A stretch of 34,929 bases of DNA from a virus, in IMG/VR virus record IMGVR_UViG_3300006802_000051, positions 1 through 34,929 of that record; one strand, 5' to 3'. The notes below the pieces were generated by a model. The model saw only the letters and a list, made by a program, of their open reading frames with translations. It had not been told where the DNA came from and made no database searches. Each line of letters opens with the position of its first letter. The first letter of the stretch is position 1. The position numbers were made by a program, and so were the translations under genes. Positions 2,845-29,154 of the stretch are shown in pieces.

Positions 2845-3239
2845 TATAACCCCTTATACATGTTAGTAATCTTAGTATCACCAACCATAAATCCGTTATC
2901 TTTAAATTTCTCTAAAAGATTATCGTTACTTTGATAAGTGTAAACTATACTAAATCCCATTTCTTTGGCTAATTCATTACAGCAATCAATACACATTTTT
3001 ATTGCATCACTTCGAATACCTCCTCGTAAGTGTGGGTCACAGACTGGAAAACCAACAAGTGCAACAGCACTATTAGTTCCATAAACCCACATCATACATA
3101 AAGGTTTATCATTATCTTTAACAACAATACCAGTCGTTGGTAAGCATTCTTGTGGCATAGGGACAATCCATTTATAACCACTCCACCAATCAACTGCTAT
3201 TTGATAATCTTTTTCTGGGATATACTTTCTTGATTGCAC
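2844..3239 (-). CDS. GNAT-like acetyltransferase-fold protein in the virion cluster
   Basis: This 131-residue protein has the pattern of a small GNAT fold. A central strand region (PLCMMWVYGTNSAVAL) is followed by a helix-strand-helix segment (IDCCNELAKEMGFSIVYTYQ) and a C-terminal GF...TKITNMYK strand. Such proteins are often found between tail-hub and ejection genes of podoviruses; their substrate is unknown. The start is GTG at 3239 with AGG six bases upstream. An ATG five bases further upstream is in another frame. The stop is coupled to the next gene by TAATG. The fold call is by pattern only, and a classical acetyl-CoA loop (Q/RxxGxG/A) is not obvious. Confidence 0.5.
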   Translation of the reverse strand: MQSRKYIPEKDYQIAVDWWSGYKWIVPMPQECLPTTGIVVKDNDKPLCMMWVYGTNSAVALVGFPVCDPHLRGGIRSDAIKMCIDCCNELAKEMGFSIVYTYQSNDNLLEKFKDNGFMVGDTKITNMYKGL

Positions 3240-21687: not shown

Positions 21688-22173
21688 TTACTGAGTTACG
21701 AACATTACATAAAGTGTTGCTGCAAGACCAATTATGCACAATATAGAAGTTAGTAAGTGTTCGTGTGTCACAATATTCTTGAATTTAATTGGTAGGTCTT
21801 TGAATATAGGGTTATCATCTTCTGCGTTATTGTCGTTGTCATTAGTAAGTTTTAAATGACGTTCAACTCTTAATAGTCTTAATTCATGATTAAAAGTATC
21901 TTCACTCAGTGCGTTGTTTATTTGTTTCTGCTTATCTTGAAACTCTTGCAACTCCCTAAACTCTTCATCGGTGAAAGTTGTGTTGTTGTCTTGTGTTTGC
22001 TCTTTAAAGCCTATTAACTTATAGCTTGTTAAGATACATGGTCTAATTTTTGAATGTCCATTCTCCATGCGTCCGATATAAGAATGCGAACAACCTAATC
22101 TAGCAGCTAATGCACGCTGTGAAAGTTTACGCTCTAATCTGAAGTTTTTTAGTTGTTGGTTTAAAGTTTCCAT
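21688..22173 (-). CDS. XRE regulator with C-terminal membrane anchor (161 aa)
   Basis: Residues 5-60 are an HTH_XRE domain (LKNFRLERKLSQRALAARLG, CSHSYIGRMENGH). A charged, helical, Asn/Asp-rich linker follows. The last 22 residues (LLTSILCIIGLAATLYVMFV) are a single hydrophobic helix at the very C-terminus. A tail-anchored DNA-binding protein would hold its operator near the membrane. The gene has its own promoter whose -35 box is centred in a 14-bp dyad. Its leader carries the UCGGCAAC-N7-AGGAAAU module complementary to the small RNA at 24188-24260. It heads the middle operon and may be a main switch protein. Confidence 0.75.
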   Translation of the reverse strand: METLNQQLKNFRLERKLSQRALAARLGCSHSYIGRMENGHSKIRPCILTSYKLIGFKEQTQDNNTTFTDEEFRELQEFQDKQKQINNALSEDTFNHELRLLRVERHLKLTNDNDNNAEDDNPIFKDLPIKFKNIVTHEHLLTSILCIIGLAATLYVMFVTQ

Positions 22174-22178
22174 TTTTA

Positions 22179-22200
22179 ATTTCCTTGTTTATGTTGCCGA
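22179..22200 (-). promoter_or_regulatory. mRNA leader module a (UCGGCAAC-N7-AGGAAAU)
   Basis: UCGGCAAC at 22200-22193 and AGGAAAU at 22185-22179 are separated by exactly seven bases, AUAAACA. UCGGCAAC begins within one or two bases of the predicted transcript start, and AGGAAAU is the ribosome site of the membrane-anchored regulator. Copies b (26264-26285) and c (26671-26692) have the same spacing. Confidence 0.65.
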
Positions 22201-22387: not shown

Positions 22388-23083
22388 TTAATCGGGTTTT
22401 TTATTCATTGCCTCACTTATATGTTTAATTGTTTCTCCGTCGCCTTGTTCATAACTCTTACCTTTATGCTCAAGTTGCCAGTTGTAACGAATGATTTTTA
22501 ATTGTTCAGCAGTGAAGTTGATATGTGGCTTGGTTAATTGGTTGCTTATTACGAAACCTGCAACTAAATTTAAATACTCGTCAATCTCCACAAAATCCGC
22601 ATTAAATCTGATTGGCAATAAGTAAGCTGAGTAACCATAACTTACCTTTCCATCGATTAAATATAGCTGCATTTCTGCTAATTGTTGCATTGAATCTTTT
22701 AATCTAAACTCCCAACCCTCACGAATTGCTTGTTGGTGTACCACATCATAACGATGTAAAGCCTCAATAATAGCTTGTTTAATTATCGCATCTTGTTCAT
22801 TACGTGCTTTCTGCCATTTATCAACATAACCGTCTTGTGGTTTAGTGTTTGAATTGGGGTTAATGTGGTAATAGGCTTTGATGATATCTTTTGGTTTTGG
22901 GTATCTATCGCATTCAACCATCATATAATCAACTACTTCTTCCCAATTGTTGTTTGGCAAGAATCTTAAAGCTTTGTGATATGCTTCAACTTTCTCAAAA
23001 GGTGATTTTCTACTATTGTGATTAAAAACAGCGTCTAATGGTCTGCAGATGTTATTATTTAAATTTTCGATTGTTAATTTCAT
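22388..23083 (-). CDS. Putative helicase loader (231 aa)
   Basis: The gene overlaps the O-like initiator gene by four bases (ATGA), the usual place of a helicase loader. The N-terminal helical text AYHKALRFLPNNNWEEVVDY followed by CDRYPKPKDIIKAY resembles the loader and inhibitor domain of phage G40P-type proteins. No Walker motif is visible, so it is not a DnaC-type ATPase. It would bring the host replicative helicase to the origin. The assignment rests on context and a weak family pattern. Confidence 0.5.
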   Translation of the reverse strand: MKLTIENLNNNICRPLDAVFNHNSRKSPFEKVEAYHKALRFLPNNNWEEVVDYMMVECDRYPKPKDIIKAYYHINPNSNTKPQDGYVDKWQKARNEQDAIIKQAIIEALHRYDVVHQQAIREGWEFRLKDSMQQLAEMQLYLIDGKVSYGYSAYLLPIRFNADFVEIDEYLNLVAGFVISNQLTKPHINFTAEQLKIIRYNWQLEHKGKSYEQGDGETIKHISEAMNKKPD

Positions 23084-23865
23084 TTATCATCTCCATATTT
23101 TTCTTTGTATTGTTTAATAATGTTGTTGTAGTAGTCATCTTGGTTATTTTCTCCTGTATAACTTTCTAAGGTGTTACTCCAACAAGAACGTTCTAGCCAT
23201 CTATCGGGGGTCATGATGTATTTGTACTCAGTTTCTGTTTCTCTCATTGCATCAGCATAAGCTTGTACTCCCTCCAGTAATTGATTGATTGTTGCTTGCT
23301 TGGTATTTAACACGTGATTGAATAGATTTTTAGTGTGAGGTTCATTTTGTTTCTTAGGATATATATCCCAAAAAATTTTAAAATCACTTTCGCTTATAAT
23401 ATTATTACTAGAATTTATTCTAGTGATAATATTATTATTAACATTATTCTCATTATTTACATTATTGTTTAGGTCTTTCTGTCGTCTTTCTGTCGTCTTT
23501 CTGTCGTCTTTCTGTTGTATCACCTCTTGGTATTTTTCATAATTAACTATAGCTATCTTATTGATTGCAGGTGTTTTTATGATTTTAATCTGTTGTTCTT
23601 TTTCGAGGTATTTTAAAAAATTTCTTAGCTTACTTCTCGACCACTTCCAACGCTCGCAAAGTGTCGATTCTGCACGTGCAATTTCAGCAAATTCTACCCT
23701 TACTTCATTACCTCGAATAAAGAATAATTCAGGTGTTTTTTTATGTCTTGCAAGTAATAATAAATCAACCCATGCAAGAGTTTTATTGAATGGCTCGGAA
23801 AAGAATAAAGGGTTTTCCCATATTGTGCGGTGGATACTAATCCAGCCTTGTATCTTTTGTGACAT
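23080..23865 (-). CDS. O-like replication initiator (261 aa)
   Basis: The first 110 residues match phage replisome organisers: GWISIHRTIWENPLFF, WVDLLLLARHKK, and a winged helix (CERWKWSRSKLRNFLKYLEK). The linker is Asn-rich and low in complexity. The C-terminal part (FKIFWDIYPKKQNEPHTKNL, YKYIMTPDRWLERSCW) is the domain that usually contacts the loader or helicase. The linker is encoded by four 11-bp direct repeats next to an A/T-rich stretch, as in lambda O where the origin lies inside the gene. GGAG lies seven bases before ATG 23865. It is the first gene of the replication operon. Confidence 0.8.
   Translation of the reverse strand: MSQKIQGWISIHRTIWENPLFFSEPFNKTLAWVDLLLLARHKKTPELFFIRGNEVRVEFAEIARAESTLCERWKWSRSKLRNFLKYLEKEQQIKIIKTPAINKIAIVNYEKYQEVIQQKDDRKTTERRQKDLNNNVNNENNVNNNIITRINSSNNIISESDFKIFWDIYPKKQNEPHTKNLFNHVLNTKQATINQLLEGVQAYADAMRETETEYKYIMTPDRWLERSCWSNTLESYTGENNQDDYYNNIIKQYKEKYGDDK
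23395..23516. other. Candidate replication origin: A/T-rich stretch, dyad and four iterons inside the initiator gene
   Basis: Four head-to-tail copies of GTCTTTCTGTC fill 23473-23516; the last copy has one change. Their 11-bp period places the copies on nearly the same DNA face. Next to them lies about 75 bp of almost pure A+T (23395-23472) that contains the dyad ACTAGAATTTATTCTAGT (23407-23424). This is the layout of lambdoid origins: initiator iterons beside an unwinding element within the initiator gene. Use as an origin is inferred. Confidence 0.55.
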
Positions 23866-24032: not shown

Positions 24033-24038
24033 ATATTA

Positions 24039-24148
24039 ATAGGGGCGTTTAATTAATGCGTGTGAATCATAATAAACGCTCCTGTCTCTTTTAATTAATC
24101 GTATAGCCCCCTTAGTTCCTTTCTTTTGTCTAGGGGGTTATTTTTTTC
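24039..24148 (+). ncRNA. Predicted structured small RNA 1 (about 110 nt)
   Basis: The unit has a promoter, a strong 5' stem and an intrinsic terminator, and no open reading frame of note. AGGGGCGUUU (24041-24050) pairs with AAACGCUCCU (24074-24083), ten base pairs with one G-U. The loop contains AAUUAAU, and UUAAUUAA recurs near 24092, so a loop-to-tail pairing is possible. The terminator loop shows UUAGUUCCUUU, an anti-Shine-Dalgarno sequence that would pair partly with the ribosome site of the secreted protein at 28281 (AAAGGAAACUAA). I do not recognise a known RNA family. Its host or phage target is unknown. Confidence 0.6.
24104..24147 (+). terminator. Intrinsic terminator of small RNA 1
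   Basis: UAGCCCCCU (24104-24112) pairs with AGGGGGUUA (24132-24140), nine base pairs with one G-U, and seven Us follow immediately (24141-24147). It works only for rightward transcription. No rightward protein gene precedes it, which is the reason to propose an RNA gene. Confidence 0.8.
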
Positions 24149-24153
24149 ATTAC

Positions 24154-24181
24154 TTTACAAAATTAAAATCTGTGCTATAAT
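24154..24181 (+). promoter_or_regulatory. Promoter of small RNA 2
   Basis: TTTACA (24154-24159), 16 bases, perfect TATAAT (24176-24181) preceded by TGC, an extended -10. The predicted start is A24188. It begins six bases after the terminator of RNA 1, so the two RNA genes are in tandem. Confidence 0.65.
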
Positions 24182-24187
24182 AAACAC

Positions 24188-24260
24188 AATGCAGCCAATA
24201 ACATTTTATTTCCTGTTGCCGAACATCATGAAATTCAGTATTGTAAATATTGGCTGCTTC
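24188..24260 (+). ncRNA. Predicted antisense small RNA 2 complementary to three phage mRNA leaders
   Basis: GCAGCCAAUA (24191-24200) and UAUUGGCUGC (24248-24257) form a perfect 10-bp closing stem around a 47-base loop. The loop carries ACAUUUUAUUUCCU followed directly by GUUGCCGA. These two parts are complementary to AGGAAAU (plus the start codon region) and UCGGCAAC in the leaders before 22173, 26259 and 26696, with seven mRNA bases looped out each time. Before 26696 the first part gives 14 continuous pairs with one G-U, covering both ribosome site and AUG. The RNA would block translation of the three operons. The 3' end is uncertain, since only UUCGUU follows the stem. Confidence 0.55.
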
Positions 24261-24261
24261 G

Positions 24262-24471
24262 TTAACTACCACTCCAATCGATACTACCATCAATTTTATT
24301 TATAATCTCCTCAAGCTCGACATATTCAGGAGTTAATCGTAACCCCCGCTGTAACATCTCATCAAGTAAATCATGCGATAATTTATGATTGCGTTCATTA
24401 ATGAATGCAGTATTCATATTATACTCAATGCACTTTCTAGCTCGATTAAGTATGTCTTCTGTGTTATCCAT
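24262..24471 (-). CDS. Small acidic helical protein (69 aa)
   Basis: The protein begins MDNTEDILNRARKCIEYNMN and has a second helical part around LTPEYVELEEIINKID. ATG 24471 lies two bases after the preceding stop with GAGGATTA upstream. It is the last gene of the recombination operon, and its stop lies just beyond the small RNA 2 stem. Function unknown. Confidence 0.5.
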   Translation of the reverse strand: MDNTEDILNRARKCIEYNMNTAFINERNHKLSHDLLDEMLQRGLRLTPEYVELEEIINKIDGSIDWSGS

Positions 24472-24472
24472 A

Positions 24473-24619
24473 TTAATCCTCTAATTCCTCCAACTCTCTT
24501 TTAGCATATTTTAGTTCAGACTCAAAATATGACATTTCAGCAGCATATATATCATCATTAGATGATATAATATCAGTTAATACACTAATTCTAATCCGCA
24601 ATTCATCTATTGTATCCAT
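24473..24619 (-). CDS. Small acidic coiled-coil protein (48 aa)
   Basis: ATG overlaps the upstream TAA (TAATG) after AAAGGGGGAG. The protein is helical and acidic (MDTIDELRIRISVLTDIISS, ending YAKRELEELED). The position in a tight operon and the strong ribosome site support a real gene. Function unknown. Confidence 0.55.
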   Translation of the reverse strand: MDTIDELRIRISVLTDIISSNDDIYAAEMSYFESELKYAKRELEELED

Positions 24620-25266
24620 TACTCCCCCTTATTAAATGGATTATCATCAACTATAAACGCTGGCTGCTCAGAGTTCGAGTCCTGTTCGGGTTGTGCTTCT
24701 GCTAGTTGCGTATGTAACGTTAAAGCTTGTGTTAGCTCATAATGTAAATCGCTATTTGTATCTAACTTACCTAGCAACGAACTAGCAGCATTAATAATCT
24801 TATCGTTCACATTATCACCATGTAATACATTGATAGCTTTTTTTACTCGCTCTTCAATTGGTATTTCTTGTTTAATTTGCAGAGGCTCAATTGTAATACG
24901 TTCTTTTTTGTTGCGTGATATTGTAATACTTAACACTTCACGCTTTACAATGTCGGATAATGATTTAATCCTAATCCCACCAACAGCTTCACCTGCCCAT
25001 CGTACATTAGCATCACGATACAACTCAACATAACGCCCAATATACAACAACTCGTCATCACCCCATAATGCAGCAAGAACACGCCCCATTGATTTACAAG
25101 GCTTCCATGGTCTACCCTGTCCACCCTCATAATCAATAATAATTGGCTGGTCTGAATTTAGGTTGATTTTTACACCAGTAATTTTAATTATCTTTGTAAT
25201 ATTACCAATTAAATCATCAGCGTTTAACTGGTCACTTTTTGGCTTTAATGCTTCTCTTATACTCAT
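24619..25266 (-). CDS. Recombination-operon partner of YqaJ exonuclease (215 aa)
   Basis: The central text GRPWKPCKSMGRVLAALWGD, then YIGRYVELYRDANVRWAGEA and VGGIRIKSLSDI, is a pattern I know from proteins encoded beside YqaJ-type exonucleases in many phages. Such a partner would be expected to bind or anneal single-stranded DNA, but no biochemical role is established to my knowledge. It is not an obvious RecT or Erf. AAAGGAG precedes the ATG, and only two bases separate the gene from the exonuclease gene. Confidence 0.55.
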   Translation of the reverse strand: MSIREALKPKSDQLNADDLIGNITKIIKITGVKINLNSDQPIIIDYEGGQGRPWKPCKSMGRVLAALWGDDELLYIGRYVELYRDANVRWAGEAVGGIRIKSLSDIVKREVLSITISRNKKERITIEPLQIKQEIPIEERVKKAINVLHGDNVNDKIINAASSLLGKLDTNSDLHYELTQALTLHTQLAEAQPEQDSNSEQPAFIVDDNPFNKGE

Positions 25267-25267
25267 T

Positions 25268-25921
25268 TTATATCTCCTTTGGTAATTCTGTTTCTATGCC
25301 GTCAATATCGTTATGTTGCTTAATTATATCTTGCACCATACTTTCAAATTCACGTCCTGCATTAACAATAATATCAATCATTTCATCATCACGTCCAATA
25401 CGTATAGGCTTCATCTTCAACCCCTCGTGATAACTGATAAAATCCATATACTCTAAATCACCAGCCATCATAACGCCCTGCATTTGTAATATATGTTCTG
25501 TATCAATATCATTATGCAATATATTAGTTAAATGATGATGACTACGTGGGGATTTAATTTCAATCCCGCCTTTTTTATCAGTAGTTAATCCATCAGGTGA
25601 CGCTCCAAATGGAAATCCAAAACTATCATTTTCAATAAAACCAACATGATATAAGTGTTGGTAATTATTATTATATAAAAAAGCTGCCTCAGCCTCTAAA
25701 GCATTGCCACGTTCCATATCATCACTAATATAGACTGGTTCTACAATACCCTTAATCCGTTCAGCAGCAATAATTAACGCTTGTGTTTTTGCTCCTGCAC
25801 CTAATTTAAGGGTTTTGGGGGTTAATATATCCCCCAATCTCGAAGCGGTTAATTTACCACATCTTACTTTTAACCAATCATCAGAGCCTTGCTCCATATT
25901 CTCATAGATTCTTTTAGCCAT
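25268..25921 (-). CDS. YqaJ-family exonuclease (217 aa)
   Basis: All parts of the lambda-exonuclease-like fold are present: QGSDDWLKVRCGKLTASRLG (residues 11-30), RGNALEAEA with E76, GASPDG with D110, and IEIKSP with E121 and K123 as the metal site. It digests one strand of double-stranded DNA ends to give 3' single strands for annealing recombination or concatemer formation. The start is coupled to the upstream acidic gene by TAATG after GGGAGGA. It is expressed from the leftward promoter at 26294-26322. Confidence 0.85.
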   Translation of the reverse strand: MAKRIYENMEQGSDDWLKVRCGKLTASRLGDILTPKTLKLGAGAKTQALIIAAERIKGIVEPVYISDDMERGNALEAEAAFLYNNNYQHLYHVGFIENDSFGFPFGASPDGLTTDKKGGIEIKSPRSHHHLTNILHNDIDTEHILQMQGVMMAGDLEYMDFISYHEGLKMKPIRIGRDDEMIDIIVNAGREFESMVQDIIKQHNDIDGIETELPKEI

Positions 25922-26259
25922 TACATATCCTCCCTAGATTCTCTAATTTGCATATCGATATATTCATCATACGCAACCTTTTCATTATATCCGCATTCTT
26001 CCATAAGCTCGTCAATATAAAGATTAACATCATTATCATTATGCGATTCTATCTCGTCATATTCCTCATTGAACATCAACTGAAAATTAAAATCATTTAA
26101 ATGCACGGATTTAATATCATGATAGCTAAAGTCGTTAGCCTGTAGCCACTCCCCTAAATCCTCAAGGCTAGCAAAAGCATTATATTTATATTGCCTTACT
26201 ACTCCTAATTCTTTTTGATTAATTGACTTAACAATATATAGAGTTAATTCGTCTGACAT
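25921..26259 (-). CDS. Highly acidic first gene of the recombination operon (112 aa)
   Basis: ATG 26259 is the start because AAGGAAAU lies just before it and the predicted transcript begins about 28 bases upstream, inside any longer frame. By my count the protein has 27 Asp/Glu and 8 Lys/Arg, and acidic residues cluster from residue 75 on (for example NEEYDEIESHNDNDVNLY). First-expressed acidic phage proteins are sometimes DNA mimics that block host nucleases, or exonuclease inhibitors. Here that is speculation. Its mRNA leader carries module b, complementary to small RNA 2. Confidence 0.6.
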   Translation of the reverse strand: MSDELTLYIVKSINQKELGVVRQYKYNAFASLEDLGEWLQANDFSYHDIKSVHLNDFNFQLMFNEEYDEIESHNDNDVNLYIDELMEECGYNEKVAYDEYIDMQIRESREDM

Positions 26260-26263
26260 TTTT

Positions 26264-26285
26264 ATTTCCTTATTTAAGTTGCCGA
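26264..26285 (-). promoter_or_regulatory. mRNA leader module b (UCGGCAAC-N7-AGGAAAU)
   Basis: UCGGCAAC (26285-26278), UUAAAUA, AGGAAAU (26270-26264), then AAAAAUG. Small RNA 2 can pair with UCGGCAAC and with AGGAAAUAAAA (11 continuous pairs). The module starts at the predicted 5' end of the recombination operon transcript. Confidence 0.65.
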
Positions 26286-26293
26286 TAAAAATA

Positions 26294-26322
26294 ATTGTAT
26301 CATAATACGTACAGCACCGCAA
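26294..26322 (-). promoter_or_regulatory. Leftward promoter of the recombination operon
   Basis: Leftward TTGCGG (26322-26317), 17 bases, TACAAT (26299-26294). The start is predicted near 26287. The -35 box uses one arm of the palindrome at 26319-26335. Confidence 0.55.
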
Positions 26323-26335
26323 CATAAAATGTTGC
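26319..26335. promoter_or_regulatory. 17-bp operator palindrome shared by divergent promoters
   Basis: GCAACATAAAATGTTGC has perfect 7-bp arms and a 3-bp centre. The left arm overlaps the -35 box of the leftward recombination promoter and the right arm overlaps the -35 box of the rightward promoter. A dimeric HTH protein bound here would silence both. The product of the adjacent HTH gene (26392) is the best candidate. Confidence 0.6.
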
Positions 26336-26360
26336 ACTTTATGCAAAAATATATTACAAT
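26332..26360 (+). promoter_or_regulatory. Rightward promoter of the HTH regulator operon
   Basis: TTGCAC (26332-26337), 17 bases, TACAAT (26355-26360); predicted start near 26367, 25 bases before the HTH gene. Its spacing and -10 box mirror those of the divergent leftward promoter. Confidence 0.6.
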
Positions 26361-26391: not shown

Positions 26392-26652
26392 ATGTGGTTA
26401 ATAAATGAATTGCCCGAAGATGCAATCAAACGATTAAAGGATATTGTAGAATTACACAAAATATCAATTACAGAACTATCTAATAATATAGGTTATACAA
26501 GGGTTCACGTTAGCGGTGTGTTAAATCAAACACGTTATTCTGATAAAGTGGTGTACAAGATTATGAATTACTTGCAACTATCACCTGATTGTATAACTAG
26601 TGAAAAAAAATATCAAAATTATAAAGAAAAGGTATTGACAAGTGAAACATAG
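26392..26652 (+). CDS. Small HTH regulator at the divergent switch (86 aa)
   Basis: Residues 10-62 fit an HTH_XRE or Cro-like domain: EDAIKRLKDIVELHKISITE, LSNNIGYTRVHVSGVLNQT. Residues after about 68 form a charged tail. The gene lies directly downstream of the 17-bp palindrome that overlaps both divergent -35 boxes. I infer that its product represses its own operon and the recombination operon. AGG lies about eight bases before ATG, a weak ribosome site. The next promoter (26635-26663) starts inside its 3' end. Confidence 0.65.
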   Translation: MWLINELPEDAIKRLKDIVELHKISITELSNNIGYTRVHVSGVLNQTRYSDKVVYKIMNYLQLSPDCITSEKKYQNYKEKVLTSET

Positions 26653-26663
26653 AATGTTACAGT
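26635..26663 (+). promoter_or_regulatory. Rightward promoter inside the 3' end of the HTH gene
   Basis: Consensus TTGACA (26635-26640), 17 bases, TACAGT (26658-26663). The start is predicted at about 26670, so the mRNA begins with leader module c and skips the HTH gene. It drives the rest of the rightward block. Confidence 0.65.
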
Positions 26664-26670
26664 TAACTTA

Positions 26671-26692
26671 TCGGCAACAAAACAAAGGAAAT
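26671..26692 (+). promoter_or_regulatory. mRNA leader module c (UCGGCAAC-N7-AGGAAAU)
   Basis: UCGGCAAC (26671-26678), AAAACAA, AGGAAAU (26686-26692), then GAAAUGU with the AUG of the next gene. This copy has the best match to small RNA 2: AGGAAAUGAAAUGU pairs over 14 bases with one G-U, plus eight pairs with UCGGCAAC. Confidence 0.65.
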
Positions 26693-26695
26693 GAA

Positions 26696-26839
26696 ATGTA
26701 TATATTAATCAAACAAGATGGCACAACTTCCGAACCAATGGAGTTATTCGCTGCTATCAAACTTAAAACCCCAAACGAACGCATACAGAATGCAATGTCT
26801 GGTGATGAGGTAAAAAAACTTTATGAGGGCATGAAGTAA
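26696..26839 (+). CDS. Small protein, first gene after module c (47 aa)
   Basis: ATG 26696 is the start because AAAGGAA lies seven bases upstream; a longer in-frame ATG at 26642 would lie before the predicted transcript start. The protein, MYILIKQDGTTSEPMELFAA onward, has a short strand pair and two helices. Function unknown. It is coupled to the next gene by TAATG. Confidence 0.55.
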   Translation: MYILIKQDGTTSEPMELFAAIKLKTPNERIQNAMSGDEVKKLYEGMK

Positions 26840-28182: not shown

Positions 28183-28257
28183 GAGGGCATAGCTTAGTGG
28201 CTAAAGCGTCGGTCTCCAAAACCGAAGACCTGAGTTCGATTCTCAGTGCCTTTGCCA
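28183..28257 (+). tRNA. tRNA-Trp (anticodon CCA), CCA end encoded
   Basis: A complete 75-nt cloverleaf can be drawn. The acceptor is GAGGGCA/TGCCTTT, the D stem GCTT/AAGC, the anticodon stem TCGGT/ACCGA with loop CTCCAAA, and the T stem CTGAG/CTCAG with loop TTCGATT. It has discriminator G and encoded CCA. Anticodon CCA reads UGG (Trp), and G73 fits tRNA-Trp. The acceptor stem holds two G-U pairs, at 1-72 and 3-70. It lies between gapR and the secreted-protein gene and is likely processed from their transcript. No integrase is present, so it is not an obvious attachment site. Confidence 0.9.
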
Positions 28258-29090: not shown

Positions 29091-29110
29091 AGGGCTGTTT
29101 CGGCAGCCCT
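29091..29110 (+). terminator. Hairpin after the secreted-protein gene
   Basis: AGGGCUG pairs with CAGCCCU around a six-base loop UUUCGG, seven bases after the stop codon. No U-tract follows (GAAATGAGGGG), so termination is doubtful. It may protect the 3' end of the mRNA or partly reduce read-through into the small genes after it. Confidence 0.5.
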
Positions 29111-29154
29111 GAAATGAGGGGAATAAAATAATATGAATATAAAGAGAGGTTGTA

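What the first reader, a model, noticed from the sequence alone, without database searches (positions are those of the whole stretch)
24188..24260. Phage-encoded antisense small RNA that could silence three phage operons at once
Seen: a rightward extended -10 promoter and a 10-bp closing stem enclose a loop with ACAUUUUAUUUCCU joined directly to GUUGCCGA. These are complementary to AGGAAAU(N)AUG and UCGGCAAC in three separate phage leaders (22179-22200, 26264-26285, 26671-26692), each with exactly seven bases looped out of the mRNA. Best case (26671-26699): 14 continuous pairs covering ribosome site and AUG, plus 8 pairs. Established: lambda OOP and P22 sar show that phages use antisense RNAs near replication and immunity genes, but those act on a single overlapping target. 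Inference: a trans-acting RNA coordinating the membrane-anchored repressor, recombination and rightward operons.
Basis: partly seen in the sequence, partly recalled or inferred. Interest (0 to 1): 0.88.

Follow-up and report, generated by a model that had tools for sequence, protein, structure and literature searches.

The report
Phage hairpin RNA matching three leaders
A small phage genome carries, behind one of its strongest-looking promoters, a hairpin whose loop is the mirror image of the identical start-of-message sequence on three other phage transcripts, so it probably makes a small RNA that blocks all three together; this is unproven because no close relative carrying it was found and no transcript data exist.

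Summary
TCGGCAAC-N7-AGGAAAT occurs three times in the window, always where a sigma-70-like promoter would start a transcript and just before an ORF. One antisense copy without the N7 lies at 24201-24222, in the loop of a 10-bp hairpin starting three bases after the predicted start of a TTTACA-16-TATAAT promoter with a TG extension. No shuffle of the genome (0/400) gives even one TCGGCAAC-N0-10-AGGAAAT; the genome holds four. That hairpin is the only one of its kind in the genome (0.12 expected). The leaders rank 1, 2 and 4 among 7,754 genome windows as pairing partners, cis site aside. Best explanation: a trans-acting antisense RNA that covers mRNA 5' ends and ribosome sites of three early transcripts. 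Transcription, 3' end and function are inferred. There is no recognisable terminator, no Rfam match and no relative carrying it, so covariation could not be tested. P1 C4 and P4 CI RNA are closer analogues than OOP or sar. A partial parallel turned up: in many cluster K mycobacteriophages a covarying hairpin presents an antisense copy of the repeated Start-Associated Sequence, but other K phages with identical SAS lack it. New variant of a known kind.

The parts
24154..24181 (+). promoter TTTACA-16-TATAAT with TG before the -10; predicted RNA start 24188
   Evidence: 11 of 12 consensus bases, tied best of the 9.5-kb scan; match to consensus only
24188..24260 (+). candidate antisense small RNA (3' end unknown)
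   Evidence: hairpin -19.3 kcal/mol, z -3.46; no Rfam family
24191..24200 (+). 5' arm of closing stem GCAGCCAATA
   Evidence: only perfect 10-bp, >=5 GC, loop 30-60 inverted repeat in the genome; 0.12 expected
24248..24257 (+). 3' arm of closing stem TATTGGCTGC
24201..24214 (+). anti-ribosome-site block ACAUUUUAUUUCCU
   Evidence: 7, 11 and 14 contiguous pairs with the three leaders
24215..24222 (+). anti-5'-end block GUUGCCGA
   Evidence: 8 of 8 pairs with all three leaders
26671..26692 (+). target leader 3, TCGGCAAC AAAACAA AGGAAAT; full pairing to 26699
   Evidence: exact motif; duplex -27.7 kcal/mol
26264..26285 (-). target leader 2, TCGGCAAC TTAAATA AGGAAAT
   Evidence: exact motif; duplex -23.2 kcal/mol
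22179..22200 (-). target leader 1, TCGGCAAC ATAAACA AGGAAAT
   Evidence: exact motif; duplex -21.7 kcal/mol
26635..26663 (+). promoter of target 3, TTGACA-17-TACAGT; start predicted at A26670
22208..22236 (-). promoter of target 1, TTGACA-17-TAGATT; start predicted at A22201
26294..26322 (-). promoter of target 2, TTGCGG-17-TACAAT with TG; start predicted at A26286
   Evidence: read from the sequence; poor -35, not in the scan list
21688..22173 (-). ORF behind leader 1: 161 aa, HTH_3 domain, hydrophobic C-terminus
   Evidence: PF01381 E 6.9e-10
25921..26262 (-). ORF behind leader 2: 113 aa, unknown, first gene of a leftward operon with a YqaJ-type exonuclease (25268-25921)
   Evidence: PF09588 E 3.3e-12 for the exonuclease
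26696..26839 (+). ORF behind leader 3: 47 aa, unknown, start of a rightward gene string
   Evidence: no family

Best explanation
A phage-encoded, trans-acting antisense RNA. Seen in the sequence: promoter, hairpin, and a loop that is the exact complement of two conserved blocks shared by three leaders. Inferred: RNA made from 24188 rightward shows GUUGCCGA in its apical loop, contacts UCGGCAAC at the extreme 5' end of each target mRNA, zips on through AUUUCCU over the ribosome site (to the AUG in the best target), bulging seven mRNA bases, and blocks ribosome loading and/or exposes the mRNA to RNases. Targets are the HTH/hydrophobic-tail gene (22173), the leftward recombination operon (26262) and the rightward operon (26696). 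Further inference: transcripts of the leftward operon that read through 24260-24188 would carry the RNA's perfect complement and would titrate it and collide with its promoter, so the RNA and one of its targets would repress each other, giving a switch-like step.
For: Three exact leaders and one antisense copy, 0 in 400 shuffles. Best antisense to all three leaders anywhere in the genome apart from the leaders' own opposite strands; leaders rank 1, 2 and 4 of 7,754 windows, the cis site excluded. Strong promoter in the right place and strand. Unique hairpin enclosing the antisense. Favourable net energy: duplex -21.7 to -27.7 against about 7-8 kcal/mol of opening; leaders nearly unstructured. 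Similarity to the leaders starts at T of TCGG, one base after the predicted mRNA starts, and does not extend into the TTA conserved upstream of all three leaders, as expected for RNA pairing rather than a copied promoter. AGGAAAT is not this phage's general ribosome site: besides leaders and the antisense copy it precedes an ATG within 8 nt only once more.
Against: No transcript data. No terminator-like site after the hairpin. No relative carries it, so no covariation; the nearest early-region relative L206 (53-61% identical proteins) lacks leaders and RNA. A stretch of unrelated sequence at 29098(+) pairs nearly as well (-23.4), so energy alone is not specific. Partner blocks are partly paired inside the RNA (opening about 6 kcal/mol).
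Confidence: 0.6

Rival explanations
1. A fourth, decayed copy of the leader cassette on the minus strand (TCGGCAACAGGAAATAAAATG...), left by duplication and trimmed by seven bases, without RNA function; it could start a 9-codon ORF.
For: The minus strand reads SD-spacing-ATG correctly, AGGAAATAAAATG then ATG TTA TTG GCT GCA TTG TGT TTA TTA TAG. The leaders do share ancestry-like similarity (I1: 43 nt, 81%).
Against: No promoter aligned with it on the minus strand, while all true leaders have one; similarity does not include the upstream TTA; it lies exactly in the loop of a unique hairpin behind a strong opposite-strand promoter.
Confidence: 0.15
2. The rightward transcript is a leaderless mRNA for a 38-aa peptide (MQPITFYFLL..., ATG at 24189).
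For: ATG begins one base after the predicted RNA start; open to 24305.
Against: No family match at E<=1; the ORF runs into the opposite-strand gene 24262-24471; does not explain the antisense or the hairpin.
Confidence: 0.05
3. Cis-acting only: an OOP-like antisense transcript against the leftward operon and/or a transcription event near the replication genes, with the leader complementarity of little consequence.
For: Lies between the recombination and DnaD-like replication genes, antisense to the leftward operon; a second rightward RNA candidate with a terminator sits beside it.
Against: Leaves the 8+7 match to three distant leaders unexplained.
Confidence: 0.12
4. The repeated leader is a DNA or RNA site for a phage or host protein, and the 24201-24222 copy is one more such site.
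For: The motif sits at +2 of three promoters, and the conserved TTA upstream is unpaired by the RNA.
Against: The fourth copy lacks the 7-nt spacer, has the opposite orientation to its own promoter, and sits in an RNA hairpin loop.
Confidence: 0.08

Closest known systems
P1/P7 C4 antisense RNA
   Same: Phage RNA of about 77 nt whose loops a' and b' pair with target mRNA; structured, trans-capable, in an immunity circuit (PMC5320573)
   Different: C4 has three stem-loops and is processed from a longer transcript by RNase P; here a single hairpin with its own promoter and three separate leaders; no Rfam match
P4 CI RNA (own knowledge)
   Same: Small structured phage RNA pairing with leader sequences
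   Different: P4 RNA causes premature termination in its own operon's leader; here distant ribosome sites are the predicted targets
Lambda OOP and P22 sar RNA (PMC12197685)
   Same: Own promoter, opposite-strand position near replication or immunity genes, antisense block of expression
   Different: They overlap a single target; here three non-overlapping targets
VpdS of phage VP882 (PMC12197685)
   Same: Trans-acting phage RNA that affects phage mRNAs
   Different: Hfq-dependent with host targets too; here predicted targets share a built-in repeated leader
Start-Associated Sequences of cluster K mycobacteriophages (PMC3203893)
   Same: Repeated asymmetric motif at translation starts of many phage genes, role unknown; in many K phages one antisense copy sits in a covarying hairpin loop
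   Different: Different sequence and host; Amohnition, Shandong1 and Marshawn keep SAS without an exact anti-SAS loop

Membership tests
C4 antisense RNA (Rfam) | match to the family's covariance model | tested here: not met
   no hit at gathering score or at E<=10
C4 antisense RNA (Rfam) | three stem-loops with two exposed antisense loops | tested here: not met
   single long hairpin predicted
C4 antisense RNA (Rfam) | RNase P processing from a longer transcript | not testable with these tools
   needs RNA data; own promoter suggests otherwise
OOP/sar type cis antisense RNA | target overlaps the RNA gene | tested here: not met
   targets 2.0-2.5 kb away, two on the minus and one on the plus strand; an additional cis overlap with the leftward operon exists
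OOP/sar type cis antisense RNA | own promoter and intrinsic terminator | tested here: inconclusive
   promoter yes, no terminator-like site at 24260
trans-acting base-pairing sRNA | complementarity to ribosome sites of unlinked mRNAs above chance | tested here: met
trans-acting base-pairing sRNA | expressed RNA that changes target expression | not testable with these tools
   no transcriptome for this phage
trans-acting base-pairing sRNA | conserved or covarying in relatives | tested here: inconclusive
   no relative with the element found

The most novel reading that the evidence does not exclude
A phage uses a repeated 5' leader as a shared address read by one dedicated antisense hairpin RNA, which silences three early transcripts together and is itself switched off by one of them; phages of unrelated lineages (for example cluster K mycobacteriophages with their Start-Associated Sequences) arrived at the same layout.
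Probability: 0.25. Interest if true: 0.78.

Novelty: new variant of a known kind. Interest (0 to 1): 0.58.

Why it matters
Known phage antisense RNAs mostly control a single neighbouring gene. One RNA reading a leader repeated on three transcripts would be a compact RNA regulon inside a 35-kb phage. It would also give a concrete, testable answer to why some phages carry repeated sequences at translation starts, a question stated as open for cluster K mycobacteriophages in 2011 (protein or RNA partner unknown, PMC3203893) and whose functional role still awaited testing in 2025 (PMC12699233).

Tried and rejected
Relatives: viral contigs by exonuclease, terminase, capsid, p215 and DnaD-like proteins and by leader and loop patterns; genome contigs by leader pattern and p215; 50 related records searched for the HTH and DnaD-like proteins. 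Only a near-identical contig of the same phage (L003; it does not cover the RNA) and remote relatives were found. Exact matches to the loop in other phages are in unrelated contexts. Second rightward RNA 24036-24153: its terminator loop looked complementary to leader 3 by eye, but the duplex is only -12.6 kcal/mol and unremarkable: rejected as a fellow regulator of the leaders. Rfam near-hits trpB and Glutamine-II are far below their thresholds. One search used a misplaced bracket string; one search is the correct count.

Full report
Setting. The window is a 34,929-base IMG/VR virus record. A second contig, L003, is 99.9% identical and wraps across the window's ends, so the genome is effectively circularly closed. 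Capsid and portal are Mx8-like; remote relatives of an early protein lie mostly in Alphaproteobacteria; the host is unknown. Leftward genes include a YqaJ-type exonuclease (25268-25921), a phrog_11517 protein (24619-25266) and a DnaD-like helicase loader (23080-23865); HTH proteins lie at 21688-22173 (HTH_3 plus a hydrophobic tail) and 26392-26652.

Observation. TCGGCAAC-N7-AGGAAAT occurs exactly three times, and a search allowing three mismatches finds nothing more. Each copy follows a promoter-like site so that the predicted first transcribed base is the A just before TCGG: TTGACA-17-TACAGT (26635), TTGACA-17-TAGATT (22236, minus) and TTGCGG-17-TACAAT (26322, minus; weak -35). Each is followed by a start codon. 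The candidate RNA has TTTACA-16-TATAAT with TG, tied best in the 9.5-kb scan, and a perfect 10-bp stem from +4 that encloses ACATTTTATTTCCT-GTTGCCGA.

Chance. In 400 dinucleotide shuffles TCGGCAAC-N0-10-AGGAAAT never appears; the genome has four. The 10-bp inverted repeat is the only one of its class in the genome, with 0.12 expected. The hairpin's z-score is -3.46. Against all 7,754 windows of both strands, and after removing the cis site, the best partners are leader 3 (-28.2), leader 2 (-23.7), an apparently unrelated stretch at 29098 (-23.4) and leader 1 (-22.2 kcal/mol). Among all 23-mers of the genome that pair with all three leaders at -18.9 or better, only the leaders' own opposite strands and 24201-24207 qualify. 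Opening costs are about 6 kcal/mol in the RNA and 0.7-1.7 in the leaders, leaving a net of roughly -14 to -21.

Why RNA rather than a copied DNA cassette. The three leaders resemble each other upstream too (43 nt at 81% between leaders 1 and 3; TTA before TCGG in all), but the fourth copy matches only from the transcribed T onward, lacks the variable spacer, has no promoter of its own in that orientation, and sits in the loop of a hairpin behind an opposite-strand promoter. This is an argument from layout, not proof.

Mechanism. See Best explanation. Seen: parts and complementarity. Inferred: transcription, loop-first contact with the mRNA 5' end, block of ribosome loading, mutual inhibition with the leftward operon. 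Weakest point: no terminator-like site near 24260, so the RNA may be longer or processed.

Relatives. The nearest early-region relative, L206, keeps exonuclease, p215 and DnaD-like genes at 53-61% identity in the same order, but lacks the HTH/tail gene, the leaders and the RNA. No other record carries the leader-antisense pair. Covariation is therefore untested, not refuted.

Known kinds. By way of working it is closest to trans-acting phage RNAs such as P1 C4 and P4 CI (own knowledge), not to OOP or sar, which overlap single targets. It is not a member of Rfam C4.

A parallel elsewhere. Cluster K mycobacteriophages carry the repeat GGGATAGGAGCCC in 11-19 copies per genome, nearly all just before gene starts; its partner, RNA or protein, was left open (PMC3203893). 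In Adephagia the single opposite-strand copy (58682-58694, one mismatch) lies in the gp92-gp93 gap as the apical loop CCUCCUAUCC of a -33.7 kcal/mol hairpin. The surrounding region matches 146 phage records. In nine representatives the anti-SAS loop is invariant while the outer stem changes with both-sided compensation at two pairs (98.4% of cells paired against 28-47% when slid; nine related sequences, so modest evidence). But Amohnition (a one-base-shorter variant), Shandong1 and Marshawn keep 17 SAS-like copies without an exact anti-SAS loop, so the partner is not universal. This is a lead, not a confirmation.

Verdict. Observation confirmed; antisense interpretation the most likely one (0.6); function and expression unproven; a new variant of a known kind.

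Noticed in passing
24036-24153 (+): A second rightward RNA candidate: promoter-like TTGAAC-17-TATATT, two hairpins and a terminator TAGCCCCC...GGGGGTTATTTTTTT just upstream of the DnaD-like gene (z -4.36); OOP-like position. L206 has a similar terminator-bearing stretch on the matching strand upstream of its DnaD-like gene (about 2955-3099).
   Followed up: partly
L261:28663-28712 (Adephagia 58663-58712): Cluster K mycobacteriophage hairpin whose loop is antisense to the Start-Associated Sequence; loop invariant and outer stem covarying in nine phages, absent in some others with the same SAS.
   Followed up: partly
L261:28567-28760 (Adephagia about 58567-58760): The same gap looks like a longer conserved noncoding RNA: CTTTTAGACT, then GCACAACTGTGCCCAAAA, then a GGCCCC...GGGGCC hairpin, shared by many cluster K phages although the next hairpin's loop varies. 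Some records annotate hypothetical proteins over it.
   Followed up: no
26309-26350: Palindrome GCAACATAAAATGTTGC between the divergent promoters of the leftward operon and the HTH gene 26392-26652, a likely operator.
   Followed up: no
29098-29134 (+): Third-best pairing partner of the RNA (-23.4 kcal/mol), spanning a terminator-like hairpin and AGGGGAATAAAATAATATG ahead of a small hydrophobic ORF; possibly chance.
   Followed up: partly
28183-28257 (+): Phage-borne tRNA-Trp (cca).
   Followed up: no
23473-23516: Tandem 11-bp repeats GTCTTTCTGTC inside the DnaD-like gene; L206 shows a comparable repeat CGACAGGAAGA in its homologous gene.
   Followed up: no
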